Shown piece after piece: positions 12,463 to 42,812 of a stretch of DNA of 43,722 nucleotides (the stretch's first letter is position 1; each line of letters begins with the position of its first letter). The translations under genes and the position numbers were made by a program. The notes under the pieces are model-generated. The model saw only the letters and a list, made by a program, of their open reading frames with translations, ran no database searches and was not told the DNA's origin. The stretch is from an archaeon (lineage in GTDB: Archaea > Aenigmatarchaeota > Aenigmatarchaeia > GW2011-AR5), in assembly GCA_028279825.1 (NCBI GenBank), contig JANQNA010000004.1, positions 1 through 43,722 of the forward strand, in the 5' to 3' direction.

Positions 12463-13422
12463 ATGGATGGACAAGAACAATCAGAGCAAGAGCTGCTAAA
12501 AGAGCTTATAAGTCGGAACCATTTCAGTGTTGACGTAGTTTCCCCTGGTCCCAGGACTCGTTATCCGGTGTTTCATATTGATTCAATGTTGCATTATCCG
12601 GAGGGTACCATGGAAAGAGAGGGCAGAGGAGGTCACGGCTCACATTCCCATCATGTAAATCCTAGATATGTACGCATGGAGGAACGCGCCTACATGGATG
12701 ATGCAGTGAGACATGGTGCTGATTTATTGTTTACTTGGTCACTTGAAGCCAAGAAATTAGAAGCTGAAAGATCTGGTAAATTTCTCCCTGAAGAGGATAT
12801 GGAAAAAGAAGATGCAGAAAGAACTTTAGACGATGAGCAGATTTGGGATCCTTCGGGATATGATTGTGTTTTAGAAAATTCACATGGATCGCATTCAGAT
12901 GTTATTTTGAATATGGCAAGAAGAGAAACTGCCGAGTATTGGATACGAAGATATATGGGGGAAGAAGCTGGATCAGAACGTATACGAGAGGCAAGAACCA
13001 GGGGTTTGAGAAAACTAAAGGATCATGAAGAAGGTAGATTATTCACTGGTTTAATTTTTGCTATAGACGGTTTTGAGTATCAATGGAGATACGGAAGATC
13101 TCCTGCTTCACAGAAAATGGGAAATCTGTTACATAGCAAACAACATTATGACAGAATCTGTTCCGAATTGGGCGTAGTACCGGTTAATTTTGGTTTTGTC
13201 GGGGAATTAGCAAGATTAGAACTTGAGTATGGTAGTGCGGTGCCTTTTGAAAAACATGCAAAACTCTTGGTAGATGAACTGGTAAGACGTGGGAAAAAAC
13301 AATACCATAGAGGTAGTTTTGATGTTTGGATTGGAAAGCGACGTGCCACGGTTAGACACACTAGCTGCGGATGTCGTCATAACGAACCACCAGAGACCCG
13401 GGAAGCAATTATAAAACTATAA
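12463..13422 (+). CDS. His-rich protein of unknown function
   Basis: 319 aa, no family recognised. Features: an N-terminal FHIDSMLHYPEG (about 43-54), a His-rich stretch GGHGSHSHHVNP (about 62-73), a second echo NSHGSHSDV (about 144-152), a charged middle, and a C-terminal CGCRH. The repeated HGSHS elements and spread His, Asp and Glu residues look like possible metal ligands, which would fit a hydrolase, but this is inference. There is no signal peptide. A TTTAAATT box lies about 30 nt before the ATG, so the mRNA is probably leaderless. Composition resembles the orphan genes at 36-38 and 40-43 kb. Confidence 0.75.
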   Translation: MDGQEQSEQELLKELISRNHFSVDVVSPGPRTRYPVFHIDSMLHYPEGTMEREGRGGHGSHSHHVNPRYVRMEERAYMDDAVRHGADLLFTWSLEAKKLEAERSGKFLPEEDMEKEDAERTLDDEQIWDPSGYDCVLENSHGSHSDVILNMARRETAEYWIRRYMGEEAGSERIREARTRGLRKLKDHEEGRLFTGLIFAIDGFEYQWRYGRSPASQKMGNLLHSKQHYDRICSELGVVPVNFGFVGELARLELEYGSAVPFEKHAKLLVDELVRRGKKQYHRGSFDVWIGKRRATVRHTSCGCRHNEPPETREAIIKL

Positions 13423-14208: not shown

Positions 14209-15042
14209 ATGGTATCCAGGAGAAGATTTACTGGTGCTTTAGGCTGTTTATTGGCCATGCCTTTTGCTGATGAAAAAGGACAGGCTGTTCATGTAAATCT
14301 GCCTGCTTATAGACTAAGATTACATGAAAGAATTCATGGTTTTGATGTCATTCATACTTTTCCTGTTGGAATAGGCAAGGGTGCTTATGGGAGACGTCCA
14401 ACACCTGTGCTTGATGGGTCCCTGACAGAAAAAAGATACCGAATGAATATACGCTATGCAAGAACAGGGAAGATTATAAGATGGGACAGAACATTTGATG
14501 AAAGCGGAAGTCCTTTTGAACAAAGAATGCCATACAAACGCATGAGAGCCATTCAGATGGAGCTTACTGACGATGATATATGTTATACGAGGTTTGTGAT
14601 TCATTCGACAACTGATGAATTCACTGTTGGAATCCCTGCTTCTTCAGGGTGCCTTAGAGTTGGTATTGAAGATATGCTAAGCTTGTATAAGCTGGTTGCT
14701 CCTGATGTTAGAGACGGTACGATTGATCCAATACCATTAAGCATAACATACGATGTTGTTGAAATAGAGGGGAAAACCGTTGTTTTCCATGCTGACGTGT
14801 ATCGTAGAGGTCTGGACTATGTGGAAGAGTTCAGAAGAGTAATTGATACTGTAGGCCTGAATCCCGACGGATTTGATCATCGGAAGGTCAGGGCATTTGC
14901 AGATGATTCGCATGAGGGTTTTCAAAGATCATATGATACTATTATGAATACACTTTCAAATGACTGGCCAAACAATTTTATTCCTGATTCCATGAAAGAT
15001 GGTTTTCACAGAAAAGTGCATATGTACGAGTTCTTACCTTAA
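14209..15042 (+). CDS. L,D-transpeptidase (YkuD-domain) protein with twin-Arg-like leader
   Basis: 277 aa. In bacteria, YkuD enzymes cross-link peptidoglycan through a catalytic Cys. The signature is present: H132 (IHSTT) and S145-S146-G147-C148-L149-R150 (ASSGCLRV). The N-terminal domain strand VNLPAYRLRLHERIHGFDVI and the FPVGIGKG...RPTPVLDG segment are typical of the fold. Residues 1-26 (SRRRF then a hydrophobic run) look like a Tat signal, although short. About 85 residues after the domain are unrecognised. Most archaea lack murein, so transfer from bacteria or action on another cell's wall should be considered. An AT box about 25 nt upstream suggests a leaderless mRNA. Confidence 0.82.
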   Translation: MVSRRRFTGALGCLLAMPFADEKGQAVHVNLPAYRLRLHERIHGFDVIHTFPVGIGKGAYGRRPTPVLDGSLTEKRYRMNIRYARTGKIIRWDRTFDESGSPFEQRMPYKRMRAIQMELTDDDICYTRFVIHSTTDEFTVGIPASSGCLRVGIEDMLSLYKLVAPDVRDGTIDPIPLSITYDVVEIEGKTVVFHADVYRRGLDYVEEFRRVIDTVGLNPDGFDHRKVRAFADDSHEGFQRSYDTIMNTLSNDWPNNFIPDSMKDGFHRKVHMYEFLP

Positions 15043-25830: not shown

Positions 25831-25862
25831 ATTTTATATAGCAGGGACATGATATTTCTTAT

Positions 25863-27419
25863 ATGAAGGGTGTATCTCCCATATTCGCTGCTGTTCTTAT
25901 TTTACTCATAGCTATCTCACTGTTCGGTATGGCTGCTGTTTTTGTATGGGATGCAACTGAAACTGGCAAGGATATTGTCTACAGGCAACAGGAAGAACAA
26001 TCAGAAGGTATTCCGTTGATTACCAGCCTGGAGGGTAATACGATACAGATCAAGGGTGTTGGACGCAGTGAACTGAAGAATCCCGAGTTCTATGTAAATG
26101 ACAAGAGGGTTGACGCACTTGGACCTGCGATACTTCATCCCGGCGTTGTTGGTGAGTATGAACTTGATTCCCAGCAGATGGCACAGTTTTCCGGGGAGGT
26201 TGAGATAAAAGTAACCACAGGAGACGGCGAGGACTTTTTAACCAGGATAATTCGCGGTATGGGACTTATATTCATCGCCCCATTTGAGTTCGTTGTGCCG
26301 GAAGTCGTCTACGCTCTTCCAGGCAGTGATATACTGTTCAGAGACTCAACCAATACAACAGACATGATGGTAATCTCAGAGCCGGGTAATGTCGGCATAG
26401 GCACTTCTACACCTGCAGAAAAACTGCACGTAATAGGAAACATACTTGCTACCGGCACTGTCTGTGATGTAAACGGCTGTATCGGAAGTGGAGGCGGTTC
26501 CGGGGGTGGAAATGTTTCTGGTGTTACTTTACACGCTGCCAAGATGACACAAACAGCTGTTCAGAATATTCCTTCAGGCGGTAATGGTTATGAAATCAGG
26601 TTTGATGTTGAAAACTTTGATGTAGGAGATATAGCCGATGTCACAAATAACCGGTTTGTAATTGAAAGGTCGGGAAAATATCTGATAACTGCAAGTATTG
26701 GTTTACATAATCTCGGTAGCGGCAAAGGTGCATGGCTTAGACTATTGAAAAACGGGGCAGGGGTAAAGTGGGCCTTATCAAGGGAAGATGAAACTATTGG
26801 AATCCCGGGTTTATCAGAAGTTCTGGATCTTGCTGCGGGGGATGTGCTTACCCTGCATGTTTATCACAACAAGGGTTCCAGCTTAAGCACTTTTATGAAT
26901 GTCGAATACCAGGCACGCATGTCTGTGATGGAACTGTCAAAATCAAGCGGTGGCGGCGGTAATGGCAGCAGCCTCTGGTCAGAATCAGGAAGTGATATTT
27001 ACTATAATTCAGGTGAGGTGGGTATAGGAACTGCCACACCAACGAGAGAACTCCATGTTATTGGCGACATTGAGGCAAGCGGATCTATGTACGCAACTGC
27101 TTACTACTATACCTCGGATGAAAGACTGAAGAGAAACATAAATCCTGTGGAAGGCCTCAGTATAATAGAGAAACTTGAAGGTGTTACTTTTGATTTTCTG
27201 GATGGCGAAACCGGTGCCGGTCTGATCGCACAGGATGTGCAAAAAGTTCTGCCGGAAGCTGTTTCGGAATCTGACGGATTGCTTTCCGTGAATTATGCAG
27301 CGCTTATGGCTCCTCTAATTGAATCAGTAAAGGAATTAAAAAAAGAGAATGATCTTTTGAGAGAAGAGCTTTCTGCTCTCAGGCAGGAGGTGTCTCTATT
27401 AAGAGAAAACGCAGAGTGA
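25863..27419 (+). CDS. Pilin-anchored surface protein with C1q-like and S74 tail-spike chaperone domains
   Basis: 518 aa mosaic. Residues 1-30 are an archaeal type IV pilin leader (KGVSPIFAAVLILLIAI; cleavage expected after G3). Two VGIGTxTPxxxLHVIG motifs (177-192 and 386-401) are the beta elements seen in tail-fibre-like trimers. Residues about 220-356 resemble a C1q/TNF jelly roll (RFVIERSGKYLITASIG). Glycine linkers lie at 209-217 and 362-370. The C-terminus is a Peptidase S74 intramolecular chaperone: S418-D-E-R-L-K423 gives the Ser/Lys pair for self-cleavage before S418, and a leucine coiled coil covers 483-517. Likely a trimeric adhesin or spike. Confidence 0.85.
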   Translation: MKGVSPIFAAVLILLIAISLFGMAAVFVWDATETGKDIVYRQQEEQSEGIPLITSLEGNTIQIKGVGRSELKNPEFYVNDKRVDALGPAILHPGVVGEYELDSQQMAQFSGEVEIKVTTGDGEDFLTRIIRGMGLIFIAPFEFVVPEVVYALPGSDILFRDSTNTTDMMVISEPGNVGIGTSTPAEKLHVIGNILATGTVCDVNGCIGSGGGSGGGNVSGVTLHAAKMTQTAVQNIPSGGNGYEIRFDVENFDVGDIADVTNNRFVIERSGKYLITASIGLHNLGSGKGAWLRLLKNGAGVKWALSREDETIGIPGLSEVLDLAAGDVLTLHVYHNKGSSLSTFMNVEYQARMSVMELSKSSGGGGNGSSLWSESGSDIYYNSGEVGIGTATPTRELHVIGDIEASGSMYATAYYYTSDERLKRNINPVEGLSIIEKLEGVTFDFLDGETGAGLIAQDVQKVLPEAVSESDGLLSVNYAALMAPLIESVKELKKENDLLREELSALRQEVSLLRENAE

Positions 27420-27919
27420 AAAGAAAAAGTGTTGACATATTCAGAAAAGAGGATGCTATTCTCATATGTTTCCTGAGTTTTCTTCTGCTTGTGCTGGTTG
27501 TTCATGCAACTACAATACATTCCGTGAACCCCGGGGCAAACAAGGAAATCACTGAGTTTAGCACCTGCAAAAAAATCACGAACAGCGGCAGTCACGGTAT
27601 ATTTGTGCCAACGGGCTCAAATTCTGAGTGGCAGGCATTTTACGATAATCCTCCGGCTGGAATATCTATAGGAAACTGTTACGTTCCGCCGGCTCCCAAG
27701 TGCGGTAAATGGGACGGTAACAGTGCATGTAGATGCGGCAGTGGTAAAGTCTGTAATTACCAAACTTTAGGTTCAATGGACAAGGACACCTGCAGCGAGC
27801 AATGTAAAGCTACCTATGCAGAATGCTGTGAATATAGTAATGGCGTGTGTTATAAAAACTGGGGTAAAACCCCTCATATCGTGGGCGGTTTTGGCGGATG
27901 GCTGGCAGCCATGTGCTAG
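27416..27919 (+). CDS. Secreted Cys-rich protein
   Basis: 167 aa starting with GTG 27416, which overlaps the spike stop by 4 bp. A basic N-terminus and hydrophobic helix (about 14-31) form a signal or anchor. The outer part has 12 cysteines, including SACRCGSGKVC and CSEQCKATYAECC, suggesting several disulphides. The segment TNSGSHGIFVPTGSNSEW precedes them. It is presumably made with the spike protein and displayed or secreted beside it. No family recognised with confidence. Confidence 0.7.
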   Translation: MKRKSVDIFRKEDAILICFLSFLLLVLVVHATTIHSVNPGANKEITEFSTCKKITNSGSHGIFVPTGSNSEWQAFYDNPPAGISIGNCYVPPAPKCGKWDGNSACRCGSGKVCNYQTLGSMDKDTCSEQCKATYAECCEYSNGVCYKNWGKTPHIVGGFGGWLAAMC

Positions 27920-40591: not shown

Positions 40592-40792
40592 ATGAAAAAC
40601 GATGGTGTATTGCGAAAACTCGATGACTATGCAGATGGTAGAGAGGGAAACCTTTCAGCAAATATGAGAAGACATGCGTTGTATCTTGCAGATGAACTGA
40701 GAACAGGAAACATGCCTGGAAGTACATACAATCTTCTAAGACGTGGAACGCACAGGATAGACCATATAGCCAGGGGACATGCGGGTGATTGA
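40592..40792 (+). CDS. Small helical orphan, paralogue of the next gene's N-terminus
   Basis: 66 aa basic helical protein. The segment RRHALYLADELRTGNMPGS, then LLRRGTHRIDHIARGH, aligns with RSEAYKLGKMLKAGQMGKE, then LLKREEHPIDHAVRDF in the next protein. The IDH element is shared. It ends 1 nt before that protein's start codon (TGA 40790-40792, ATG 40794). No known family recognised. Confidence 0.65.
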   Translation: MKNDGVLRKLDDYADGREGNLSANMRRHALYLADELRTGNMPGSTYNLLRRGTHRIDHIARGHAGD

Positions 40793-40793
40793 G

Positions 40794-41324
40794 ATGAGTG
40801 AAGAATTGAGAGAAGATGTTACATATGCTCTATGGACTTATCAACAAGACGAGATGCCAGATGAAATTCGAAGTGAGGCGTACAAACTCGGAAAAATGTT
40901 GAAAGCAGGACAAATGGGTAAAGAGGAACTTTATCTTTTGAAGAGAGAAGAGCATCCAATTGATCATGCTGTACGAGACTTTTATAGAGGAGTGGAGAAA
41001 CAACTAACTCCAAGAGAGAGTACTTGGCTGAAAGAAGCAAGAACTGCTACAAATCAGGCTGAGTATATTGCTGCTCATAGTCTATTGTGGGATTCCTTAG
41101 ATCAGAGTGGTGCTGAAAATCTCACGAATATATTTGTTGATGAATATACCGCTGGGCACGAACATGTTGATCCGCTTACGGAAGAGGGGGCAATGGCTAG
41201 GATAATGCAGCGTCTTTTCTGGGTTCCCAGGGCAAGAATACCTCAAGTTGTCAAGCAATCGTATAACGCATGTCACTCGAGCCCGGGTAAGAATTGGCGT
41301 AAGCGATGGAGAAGAGAAAAATAA
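40794..41324 (+). CDS. Orphan protein with the duplicated helical module plus a C-terminal domain
   Basis: 176 aa from ATG 40794, with GGTG 7-10 nt upstream. Residues 1-70 are the module shared with the preceding small protein (HPIDHAVRDF). The rest includes AEYIAAHSLLWDSLDQ and a TAGHEHVDPLTEEGAMARIM stretch with clustered His and acidic residues, and a very basic tail (KNWRKRWRREK). Function unknown. The basic tail may bind nucleic acid or a membrane surface. Confidence 0.68.
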   Translation: MSEELREDVTYALWTYQQDEMPDEIRSEAYKLGKMLKAGQMGKEELYLLKREEHPIDHAVRDFYRGVEKQLTPRESTWLKEARTATNQAEYIAAHSLLWDSLDQSGAENLTNIFVDEYTAGHEHVDPLTEEGAMARIMQRLFWVPRARIPQVVKQSYNACHSSPGKNWRKRWRREK

Positions 41325-41364
41325 TGACGAAGCTGAATTTAGGTAAATTTTGGGGTGTGTTAAG

Positions 41365-41745
41365 ATGAAACTAAGTGAAATTGATTTGGATGGTTTAAGG
41401 GAAGAGGCCCAAAGGAAGATAGCATATCGTGAATTTGTTAGGGAATATCGTGAAAATTCTTATGGAGAAGCTGTTGAGGGTTATCCTGATCCTGCTGCTT
41501 CACCATCGAAGGGATCCGGTGCCTTGGCAAGGTACGCCGTGGAGCAATTAAGAGCTTTTGAACGAGGAGAAAAATGCTCAACCTTTGAAGAATCATTAGA
41601 TTATCTTAGAGAAACAGGCCATTTGAATAGTTTAGTTGTTGGGAGGCTCACCAATTCTATTTTGGAGAGGTTAAAAAATGAAGCCCCAAATAAATTGCTC
41701 TATTACTTGGTAACGGTACAGAATGCCTTGGAGCCGGCGGAGTGA
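41365..41745 (+). CDS. Helical orphan protein
   Basis: 126 aa from ATG 41365, with GGTG about 8-11 nt upstream. A charged, helical N-terminus (AQRKIAYREFVREYRENS) is followed by a Gly/Pro linker (DPAASPSKGSGA) and a helical C-terminal half. One Cys. No family recognised. The next gene starts 5 nt after its stop, so it is part of the same operon. Confidence 0.66.
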   Translation: MKLSEIDLDGLREEAQRKIAYREFVREYRENSYGEAVEGYPDPAASPSKGSGALARYAVEQLRAFERGEKCSTFEESLDYLRETGHLNSLVVGRLTNSILERLKNEAPNKLLYYLVTVQNALEPAE

Positions 41746-41750
41746 TTGAG

Positions 41751-42812
41751 ATGAAAGAGCAAATAAATGTATTGGGAACAATGACCAGATTTCGTCCTGG
41801 CAGTCATGCTAATTTAGTCAGGAATCAGAATGGACAATTCCGTGTCGATGTTAATTATTATCGTCGTTCAGGTGATTCTAGATCTGTTTATGAAGTGTTT
41901 GACTTGGATGGTGTTAATATTTTACCTTCGTTTCATCCTGTGAAACAGAAAACCGATGAAGAAATAATAAGTTTTTCAGGTGAATTGTATGCGTTAGAAA
42001 CACAACCGGATGGTGAAGTAACAACACAAAGAGTCAGGATGAGAGAAGGAAGACCGGTAACAATTGGTTTTGATGGAAGATATGCAACGCATTATGATCT
42101 GACTTCCGCTGGATATCTGACAGAGCCTGTGCTTGATGAGCATCGTAGAGTATTGAATCTGTTTTCCAGATATCCTGAGGGTTTGTATTATCTAGGAAAG
42201 GGTTTGTTTAAAGGTTCAAACGGTTTTGGTATGCAGGCCATTGACTTATCCGGTGAGGCCCTTTCAGGGTTCTTTGATGATATAGAAAGAGATACGGAAT
42301 GGCATAGTTCACTAACAGGAATAAGACATAGTTTTTCTGGAAATACTCCAGTGAAAATCTTGAACTATCTGGACAATGGCCGTGTTGTAGAACGCAGACG
42401 TGAATACCGTGTGTATGAGCTTGCTGATGGCAGTTTTGCTGTACCGATACTTGGTAGTGGTGGACCTAAATATGGAGTACCTGTTTCGAGTACATATTCT
42501 GGATTTGGTGTTGGAAGATCTACAGGAGTCGATAGACTAGATAAAGTATTTCCCGAAGGTGTGGAAAGTATGGGGGATGCGACATTTTTCGGTAAGCTGG
42601 ACATAGTCAAACTGATGGACGCTGGTTTTCATGTGGTTAATTTAGGAGAGGGTGTTCGATACGGGCCTTATACGAGTGTTAATACAGAAGACGGTAGATT
42701 GGTTGCCCGGGCTGACTTTAATAAAAGTCATCTGGATGGAATTACCAGCAAATTCGCAGGTTTTGAGGCAAAGAAAGACGTATTCAATGAGAATGGTGAT
42801 TTAGTTGAGTGA
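41751..42812 (+). CDS. Orphan beta-rich protein, first of a tandem paralogous pair
   Basis: 353 aa from ATG 41751. Shared with the next gene: QPDGEVTTQ (about 90-98), LFSRYPEGL, RDTxWHxxxTGxRH, a LNxLxxxGxVxER segment, and a C-terminal block with PEGV and VVNLGEGVRYGPY. It reads as a mostly beta protein with many Gly and Asp turns. No signal peptide, membrane segment or recognised catalytic motif; the conserved WHSSLTGIRH might hold ligands. The next gene overlaps it by 8 bp. Confidence 0.72.
   Translation: MKEQINVLGTMTRFRPGSHANLVRNQNGQFRVDVNYYRRSGDSRSVYEVFDLDGVNILPSFHPVKQKTDEEIISFSGELYALETQPDGEVTTQRVRMREGRPVTIGFDGRYATHYDLTSAGYLTEPVLDEHRRVLNLFSRYPEGLYYLGKGLFKGSNGFGMQAIDLSGEALSGFFDDIERDTEWHSSLTGIRHSFSGNTPVKILNYLDNGRVVERRREYRVYELADGSFAVPILGSGGPKYGVPVSSTYSGFGVGRSTGVDRLDKVFPEGVESMGDATFFGKLDIVKLMDAGFHVVNLGEGVRYGPYTSVNTEDGRLVARADFNKSHLDGITSKFAGFEAKKDVFNENGDLVE

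What the first reader, a model, noticed from the sequence alone, without database searches (positions are those of the whole stretch)
25863..27419. Type IV pilin leader fused to C1q-like and self-cleaving tail-spike chaperone domains
The protein combines a pilin signal/anchor, two VGIGTxTP spike motifs, a C1q-like jelly roll and a Peptidase S74 domain with the S418/K423 pair. It suggests a trimeric, phage-spike-like adhesin mounted on a pilus or membrane, matured by removing its own chaperone. It could mediate host contact.
Basis: partly seen in the sequence, partly recalled or inferred. Interest (0 to 1): 0.72.

Follow-up and report, generated by a model that had tools for sequence, protein, structure and literature searches.

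The report
Archaeal pilin carrying phage-fibre-like adhesin head
A small-genome archaeon has a gene that joins a type IV pilin base to a head built like a phage tail fibre (a C1q-type binding domain and a self-cutting folding aid), one unusual member of a large set of archaeal pilins with interchangeable lectin-like heads that may be how these cells grip partners or surfaces.

Summary
ORF 25863-27419 (518 aa) encodes an archaeal type IV pilin leader and module, two VGIGTxTP beads (residues 177 and 386), a C1q-like jelly roll (about 222-360), and a C-terminal Peptidase_S74 chaperone with S418/K423 and a coiled coil. Pilin module: profile hits the solved archaeal type IV pilus 8FK7 (2.4e-10) and is present in 147 of 156 genomes of the class. 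C1q: AlphaFold pLDDT 88; Foldseek top hits are C1q domains. S74: Pfam 6.5e-15; Ser kept in 43 of 44 readable homologues, Lys in 44 of 44. The genome has assembly machinery and a prepilin peptidase. The same base carries LamG, C-type lectin, fibrinogen-like, VWA and other heads in relatives: a family of archaeal modular pilins. Pilin-bead-S74 recurs in a second archaeal family (G090) and, without S74, in a congener; the C1q version was seen only here. Pilin-S74 fusions are already listed in bacteria (PMC8179133), and beads, TNF/C1q-like tips and S74 occur in Bdellovibrio MAT fibres (PMC10769870). It is a new archaeal variant. Trimerisation, cleavage, pilus incorporation and host contact are inferred, not shown.

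The parts
25833..25840 (+). TATA-like box TTTATATA about 26 nt before the ATG, suggesting the gene has its own promoter and a leaderless or near-leaderless transcript
   Evidence: read from sequence; function inferred
25863..25871 (+). class III prepilin leader MKG, predicted cut after Gly3
   Evidence: sequence; conserved M-K-G columns in 10 pilin modules
25872..25961 (+). hydrophobic pilin helix, residues 4-33 (membrane anchor / filament core)
   Evidence: Kyte-Doolittle mean 2.88; helix 6-33 in AlphaFold model
26010..26252 (+). small beta-rich pilin head, residues 50-130
   Evidence: profile of residues 1-131 matches archaeal pilus 8FK7, E 2.4e-10; Foldseek 8fk7 rank 2, weak
26253..26342 (+). 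conserved junction between pilin and first bead, residues 131-160; moderately hydrophobic
   Evidence: shared with G090 and G003 proteins; hydropathy 1.76
26343..26477 (+). bead 1 with VGIGTSTP motif, residues 161-205
   Evidence: phmmer to Bdellovibrio MAT fibres 8ond, 8ol4, 8ojn
26478..26525 (+). Gly/Ser-rich linker, residues 206-221
   Evidence: sequence
26526..26942 (+). C1q/TNF-like jelly roll, residues 222-360 (likely ligand-binding head)
   Evidence: profile to C1QL2 8.8e-6; AlphaFold pLDDT 88.3; Foldseek C1q/cerebellin/collagen X hits
26943..26978 (+). Gly/Ser-rich linker, residues 361-372
   Evidence: sequence
26979..27113 (+). bead 2 with VGIGTATP motif, residues 373-417, directly before the cleavage site
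   Evidence: phmmer to MyRF ICA 7dc3, residues 371-502
27114..27263 (+). Peptidase_S74 core, residues 418-467; predicted self-cleavage before Ser418
   Evidence: Pfam 6.5e-15; whole-genome match; Foldseek 7dc3_B 2.9e-5
27114..27131 (+). catalytic motif SDERLK: Ser418 (27114-27116) and Lys423 (27129-27131)
   Evidence: position check; S418, D419, K423 invariant in 12 rows; S 43/44, K 44/44
27294..27413 (+). C-terminal coiled-coil helix, residues 478-517
   Evidence: AlphaFold helix with pLDDT over 90; 10 of 12 a/d positions hydrophobic
27416..27919 (+). overlapping downstream gene: 167 aa, hydrophobic N-terminal signal, Cys-rich; likely co-transcribed partner
   Evidence: 4-bp overlap; a distant relative directly follows an S74 fibre gene in G032

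Best explanation
It is a modular archaeal type IV pilin that serves as an adhesin. Export and cutting of the MKG leader by the genome's A24 prepilin peptidase leave the hydrophobic helix in the membrane, ready for a type IV filament. The C-terminal S74 domain brings three chains together and helps the beads and the C1q-like domain fold as a trimer. Once folded, Ser418/Lys423 cut the chain before Ser418 and release the 101-residue chaperone. The mature product, residues 4-417, presents a trimeric C1q-like head, most simply as a homotrimer at a pilus tip (as proposed for the bacterial minor pilin CofB). Shown here: domain make-up, Ser/Lys conservation, predicted C1q fold, presence of machinery, swapping of heads among relatives. 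Inferred: processing, trimerisation, cleavage, location, ligand binding.
For: Pilin module: archaeal pilus 8FK7 hit at 2.4e-10, identified as a P. calidifontis archaeal type IV pilus; 147 of 156 genomes, eight copies in this genome, many standalone at 130-150 aa. Machinery in the same genome: five T2SSF domains in three loci, prepilin peptidase, neighbouring ATPase-like ORFs. Cargo swapping: 54 long forms carry LamG (25), C-type lectin (4), fibrinogen (2), VWA and others. S74: Pfam 6.5e-15, dyad conserved, MyRF ICA and, weakly, the phage chaperone 3gw6 among the Foldseek hits. C1q fold. The pilin-bead-S74 architecture is retained in another family. S74 cleavage and trimeric TNF-like tips were shown experimentally in Bdellovibrio MATs.
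Against: No trimer model could be made. The full-length model has low confidence (pLDDT 51, pTM 0.30) outside the S74 domain and the pilin helix. Residues 134-152 are moderately hydrophobic (1.76), so a second membrane-contacting segment is possible. No expression data. Three pilin helices tied by one trimeric head must be reconciled with helical filament packing. In this genome the gene is a lone insertion among DNA-repair and replication genes, not beside the pilus machinery.
Confidence: 0.55

Rival explanations
1. A membrane-anchored trimeric adhesin that never enters a pilus: the pilin helix is only an N-terminal anchor, and S74 trimerises and matures the ectodomain, much as in the membrane protein MyRF.
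For: MyRF ICA is the top Foldseek hit and a sequence hit covering bead plus S74. A trimeric head on three helices is simplest in the membrane. The gene is not in a pilus operon.
Against: The whole pilin module, not just a helix, is conserved and matches a pilus subunit; standalone copies and machinery coexist.
Confidence: 0.3
2. A viral or proviral tail-fibre remnant fused by chance to a pilin leader, without cellular function.
For: C1q-like and S74 modules are common in phage proteins; the S74 domain does not group with most archaeal relatives in a poorly resolved tree.
Against: No viral families among the uncharacterised window genes scanned, apart from one weak match of unknown function; host-like GC3 and codon use, intact 518-aa frame; TATA-like box; the same pilin-bead junction in two other genomes.
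Confidence: 0.06
3. A surface enzyme in which S74 acts as a protease on other targets, as the bacterial survey suggested for pilin-S74 fusions.
For: PMC8179133 lists IPR012902-IPR030392 fusions as predicted peptidases.
Against: The characterised MAT S74 domain cuts itself and acts as a chaperone (Bd3182 S782); the C1q head and beads are typical of binding fibres.
Confidence: 0.05

Closest known systems
Bacterial modular type IV pilins (S. sanguinis PilB with VWA, PilC with ConA-like lectin; IPR012902-IPR030392 pilin-S74 architecture), PMC8179133
   Same: small pilin base with a grafted functional module; the S74 graft is already catalogued in bacteria; LamG and VWA grafts also shared
   Different: the base here is an archaeal pilin, not the bacterial IPR012902 motif; a C1q-like head and VGIGT beads lie between pilin and S74; bacterial pilin-S74 proteins were interpreted only as predicted peptidases
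Bdellovibrio MAT (mosaic adhesive trimeric) fibres, PMC10769870
   Same: VGIGT-type beads, S74 ending with SDxxxK, TNF/C1q-like or C-type-lectin heads, mosaic swapping of tips
   Different: [quoted passage not shown] the described TNF-like tips end the protein in the non-S74 subgroup, while here C1q and S74 are in one chain
MyRF intramolecular chaperone auto-processing domain (7dc3)
   Same: bead plus S74; self-cleaving trimeric membrane protein (general knowledge); top Foldseek hit of the full-length model
   Different: eukaryotic transcription factor; cleavage there releases a DNA-binding part (general knowledge); here the exported C-terminus would be shed
Phage tail fibres and endosialidase with C-terminal S74 (3gw6, 6f45, 8jov)
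   Same: C-terminal self-cleaving trimerisation chaperone
   Different: virion proteins without a membrane or pilin anchor
CofB/TcpB trimeric minor pilins (as described in PMC8179133)
   Same: pilin base with trimeric head proposed at the pilus tip
   Different: bacterial; no S74, beads or C1q described

Membership tests
Archaeal type IV pilin | class III leader (K/R-G) followed by an uninterrupted hydrophobic helix | tested here: met
   MKG-VSP...; hydropathy 2.88; alignment columns
Archaeal type IV pilin | Pfam Pilin_N above the curated cut-off | tested here: inconclusive
   13.9-16.7 bits against 25.2; 9 of 10 homologous modules match Pilin_N at E up to 0.1
Archaeal type IV pilin | homology to a solved archaeal pilus subunit over the whole module | tested here: met
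   8FK7, E 2.4e-10, profile positions 2-128
Archaeal type IV pilin | assembly platform, ATPase and prepilin peptidase in the genome | tested here: met
   (ATPases read from neighbouring ORFs, not family-scanned)
Archaeal type IV pilin | processed and assembled into filaments | not testable with these tools
   needs protein data
Peptidase S74 / intramolecular chaperone | Pfam PF13884 above cut-off at the C-terminus | tested here: met
   55.6 bits against 22
Peptidase S74 / intramolecular chaperone | Ser/Lys dyad five residues apart (SDxxxK) | tested here: met
   S418, K423; conserved 43/44 and 44/44
Peptidase S74 / intramolecular chaperone | autocleavage and trimerisation | not testable with these tools
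   only monomer prediction available; C-terminal heptads present
C1q/TNF superfamily | ten-strand jelly roll | tested here: met
   (predicted model)
C1q/TNF superfamily | Pfam C1q above cut-off | tested here: not met
   13.8 bits against 23.7; the profile of five relatives reaches C1QL2 at 8.8e-6, so C1q-like by fold rather than a filed Pfam C1q member
C1q/TNF superfamily | trimer | not testable with these tools
   no multimer prediction
Bdellovibrio-type MAT fibre | Sec signal then conserved beta-rich domain of about 130 aa at the N-terminus | tested here: not met
   pilin module instead; so it may work like a MAT but is not filed as one
Bdellovibrio-type MAT fibre | beads, S74 and swappable head | tested here: met
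Modular type IV pilin (Raynaud et al.) | N-terminal pilin plus a C-terminal module not specific to pilus biology | tested here: met
Modular type IV pilin (Raynaud et al.) | bacterial IPR012902 N-terminal motif | tested here: not met
   best matches are archaeal Pilin_N / archaeal pili

The most novel reading that the evidence does not exclude
A pilus-tip homotrimer in an archaeon whose phage-fibre-like chaperone assembles the head and then cuts itself off, so that head maturation gates pilus adhesion; with the wider set of swappable lectin-headed pilins it would be a class-wide partner-recognition repertoire.
Probability: 0.3. Interest if true: 0.75.

Novelty: new variant of a known kind. Interest (0 to 1): 0.52.

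Why it matters
How small-genome archaea recognise partners is an open question with few candidate molecules. Here a pilin base found in 147 of 156 genomes of one archaeal class carries LamG, C-type lectin, fibrinogen-like, VWA and, in this case, phage-fibre-like heads. That gives definite genes to test for binding. The S74 version also carries a built-in assay: two bands on a gel that collapse to one in S418A. It extends modular pilins and MAT-like fibres to archaea and suggests repeated reuse of phage-type trimer modules on cell surfaces.

Tried and rejected
Chance or artefact: rejected by several independent E-values and a second genome with the same pilin-bead-S74 architecture. Uniqueness of pilin-S74: first suspected from the 54 long pilins (1 of 54), then rejected when G090 (L175) was found. 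Foreign composition: no sign. Bacterial origin of the S74 domain: all genome-contig hits were bacterial, but the tree is unresolved around it, so not claimed. Pilin module in viral contigs: none. A C1q profile search of viral contigs could not run because no stretch was conserved enough, and a search with the window's own C1q domain found nothing. A combined alignment of C1q and S74 fragments misaligned and was split. Bacterial pilin leaders were sought in the fetched bacterial S74 loci: none.

Full report
What is there. The ORF at 25863-27419 on the + strand encodes 518 residues. It lies between a small ORF that follows DPH5 and DUF357, and an RPA-like gene followed by MCM and TBP, in an archaeal genome of 978 kb in 8 contigs (gene names other than DUF357 are my reading of the translations). 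A TATA-like TTTATATA lies about 26 nt before the ATG, which suggests the gene's own, leaderless transcript (inference). GC3 and codon use are like those of the housekeeping neighbours. The gene and the overlapping downstream ORF at 27416-27919 are missing from the same place in five relatives where the flanking gene order is kept: G001 and G003 of the same genus, G006, G010 and G011 of the same family. So this is a lineage-specific two-gene insertion.

Pilin part. Residues 1-131 form a module with an MKG leader, a hydrophobic helix and a small beta head. Pfam alone is below its cut-off. A profile of ten such modules hits the solved archaeal pilus subunit 8FK7 at 2.4e-10 over almost its whole length; a review (PMC12954529) identifies 8FK7 as a Pyrobaculum calidifontis archaeal type IV pilus. 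The module occurs in 147 of 156 genomes of the class, with eight copies in this genome; many copies are 130-150 aa long, that is, plain pilins. The genome has three loci with T2SSF platform domains, an A24 prepilin peptidase and neighbouring ATPase-like ORFs.

A family of interchangeable heads. Fifty-three long forms of the module from relatives and from this genome were read and scanned together with the window protein. Pfam calls Laminin_G_3 in 25 of the 54, C-type lectin in 4, DUF2341 in 4, DUF1554 in 3, FG-GAP in 2, fibrinogen in 2, beta-helix in 2, and NHL and VWA in 1 each. This genome itself has a LamG-like form (C6, 84 kb) and a VWA form (C5, 86 kb). These are the same kinds of graft described for bacterial modular pilins (PMC8179133).

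Beads. The two VGIGTxTP stretches match the solved Bdellovibrio MAT fibres 8ond at 2.7e-8 and 8ol4 at 4.2e-4, and the second, with S74, matches MyRF 7dc3. The MAT paper describes related capping-loop motifs and their presence in MyRF.

C1q-like head. Single-sequence evidence is weak. Five relatives give a profile that reaches C1QL2 at 8.8e-6. AlphaFold with 16 sequences gives pLDDT 88.3 and pTM 0.84. Foldseek's leading matches are C1q domains of Caprin-2, C1QL and cerebellin proteins and collagen X at E down to 5e-10, families known to form trimers. Such domains are frequent in phage contigs but were found in only two of the 156 genomes, this one and G138, where the 300-aa protein looks phage-like.

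S74. Pfam 6.5e-15. S418, D419 and K423 are invariant in a 12-row alignment. Among 47 domains, 44 can be read at the motif: Ser in 43, Lys in 44. The exception (Tyr) is in a short ORF of G007. The C-terminal helix has hydrophobic a/d positions in 10 of 12. In the full-length model, otherwise of low confidence, the S74 region is well predicted and its best Foldseek hit is MyRF ICA. S74 was found in 15 of 156 genomes, 19 domains.

Same architecture elsewhere. In G090, of another family, a protein of about 569 aa has an archaeal pilin leader (7e-8 to the pilin profile), several beads and S74. In G003, same genus, a 638-aa protein has pilin and beads without S74. All three share a junction that a profile finds at strong scores only in these proteins among 156 genomes (the profile was built from these three, so their own scores are not independent). 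The C1q insert was seen only in the window protein. Other S74 proteins with a readable N-terminus have Sec-type signals (G043, G027) or a multi-pass membrane part (G087). Many S74 ORFs are cut by contig ends, so the count of pilin-S74 proteins is a minimum.

Mechanism. The simplest reading is export, leader cleavage, trimerisation driven by S74, folding of head and beads, self-cleavage before Ser418, and display of the C1q-like trimer at a pilus tip or on the membrane. Bdellovibrio supplies the experimental precedent for S74 cleavage (S782A blocks it) and for TNF-like glycan-binding tips. CofB supplies the precedent for a trimeric minor pilin proposed at a tip. Nothing here shows processing, oligomeric state, location or ligand in this archaeon.

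Novelty. Pilin-S74 fusion is already listed in bacteria, and MAT fibres combine the other parts. The combination on an archaeal pilin base, with a C1q-like head, was not found in the papers searched, which cover open-licence papers only. It is a new variant of a known kind.

Limits. The lineage is not named by the tools. No multimer prediction was available. A moderately hydrophobic stretch at residues 134-152 leaves some doubt about topology. Genomes searched are partly incomplete.

Noticed in passing
G000 contig C6, about 28.95-39.8 kb (L094, L095): A giant ORF of about 3600 aa with a Sec-like signal, a FQGRL-type N-terminal domain reminiscent of MAT fibres and many VGIGT beads, no S74, a few kb downstream of a type IV pilus assembly locus; followed by 602-aa and 1005-aa surface-type proteins.
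   Followed up: partly
window 27416-27919; L276 506-1486; L177, L038 and L033 downstream ORFs: S74 fibre genes are often followed at once by a secreted, often Cys-containing protein. The window's 167-aa partner has a distant relative (E 8.8e-5) directly after an S74 gene in G032; other loci have apparently unrelated small secreted ORFs in that place.
   Followed up: partly
L174 / L279 4803-5756 (G087): An S74 domain fused to a multi-pass membrane protein that is the last of a tandem set of similar membrane proteins; an unusual S74 anchor.
   Followed up: no
class-wide, 147 of 156 genomes: Pilin module with swappable LamG, C-type lectin, fibrinogen-like, VWA, FG-GAP, NHL and beta-helix heads; up to 20 module matches in one genome (G046). 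Arguably the larger story than the single gene.
   Followed up: partly
G000 contig C5, 84670-86129 (L159): A pilin module fused to a VWA domain in the same genome, an archaeal parallel to S. sanguinis PilB.
   Followed up: no
window 14209-15042: An L,D-transpeptidase (YkuD) domain protein (Pfam 3.5e-10) with an Arg-rich signal-like N-terminus in an archaeal genome; unexpected for an organism presumed to lack peptidoglycan, possibly acting on a partner's wall.
   Followed up: no
window 40779-42812 and 12463-13422: ORFs of 181, 131, 356 and 319 aa with no Pfam or PHROGs match.
   Followed up: partly
L188 and L187 (G007 C1, 8-24 kb): Several S74 and bead fragments in a row, one with Tyr in place of the catalytic Ser and one match interrupted by a stop; looks like a decaying or recombining fibre cassette array.
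   Followed up: no
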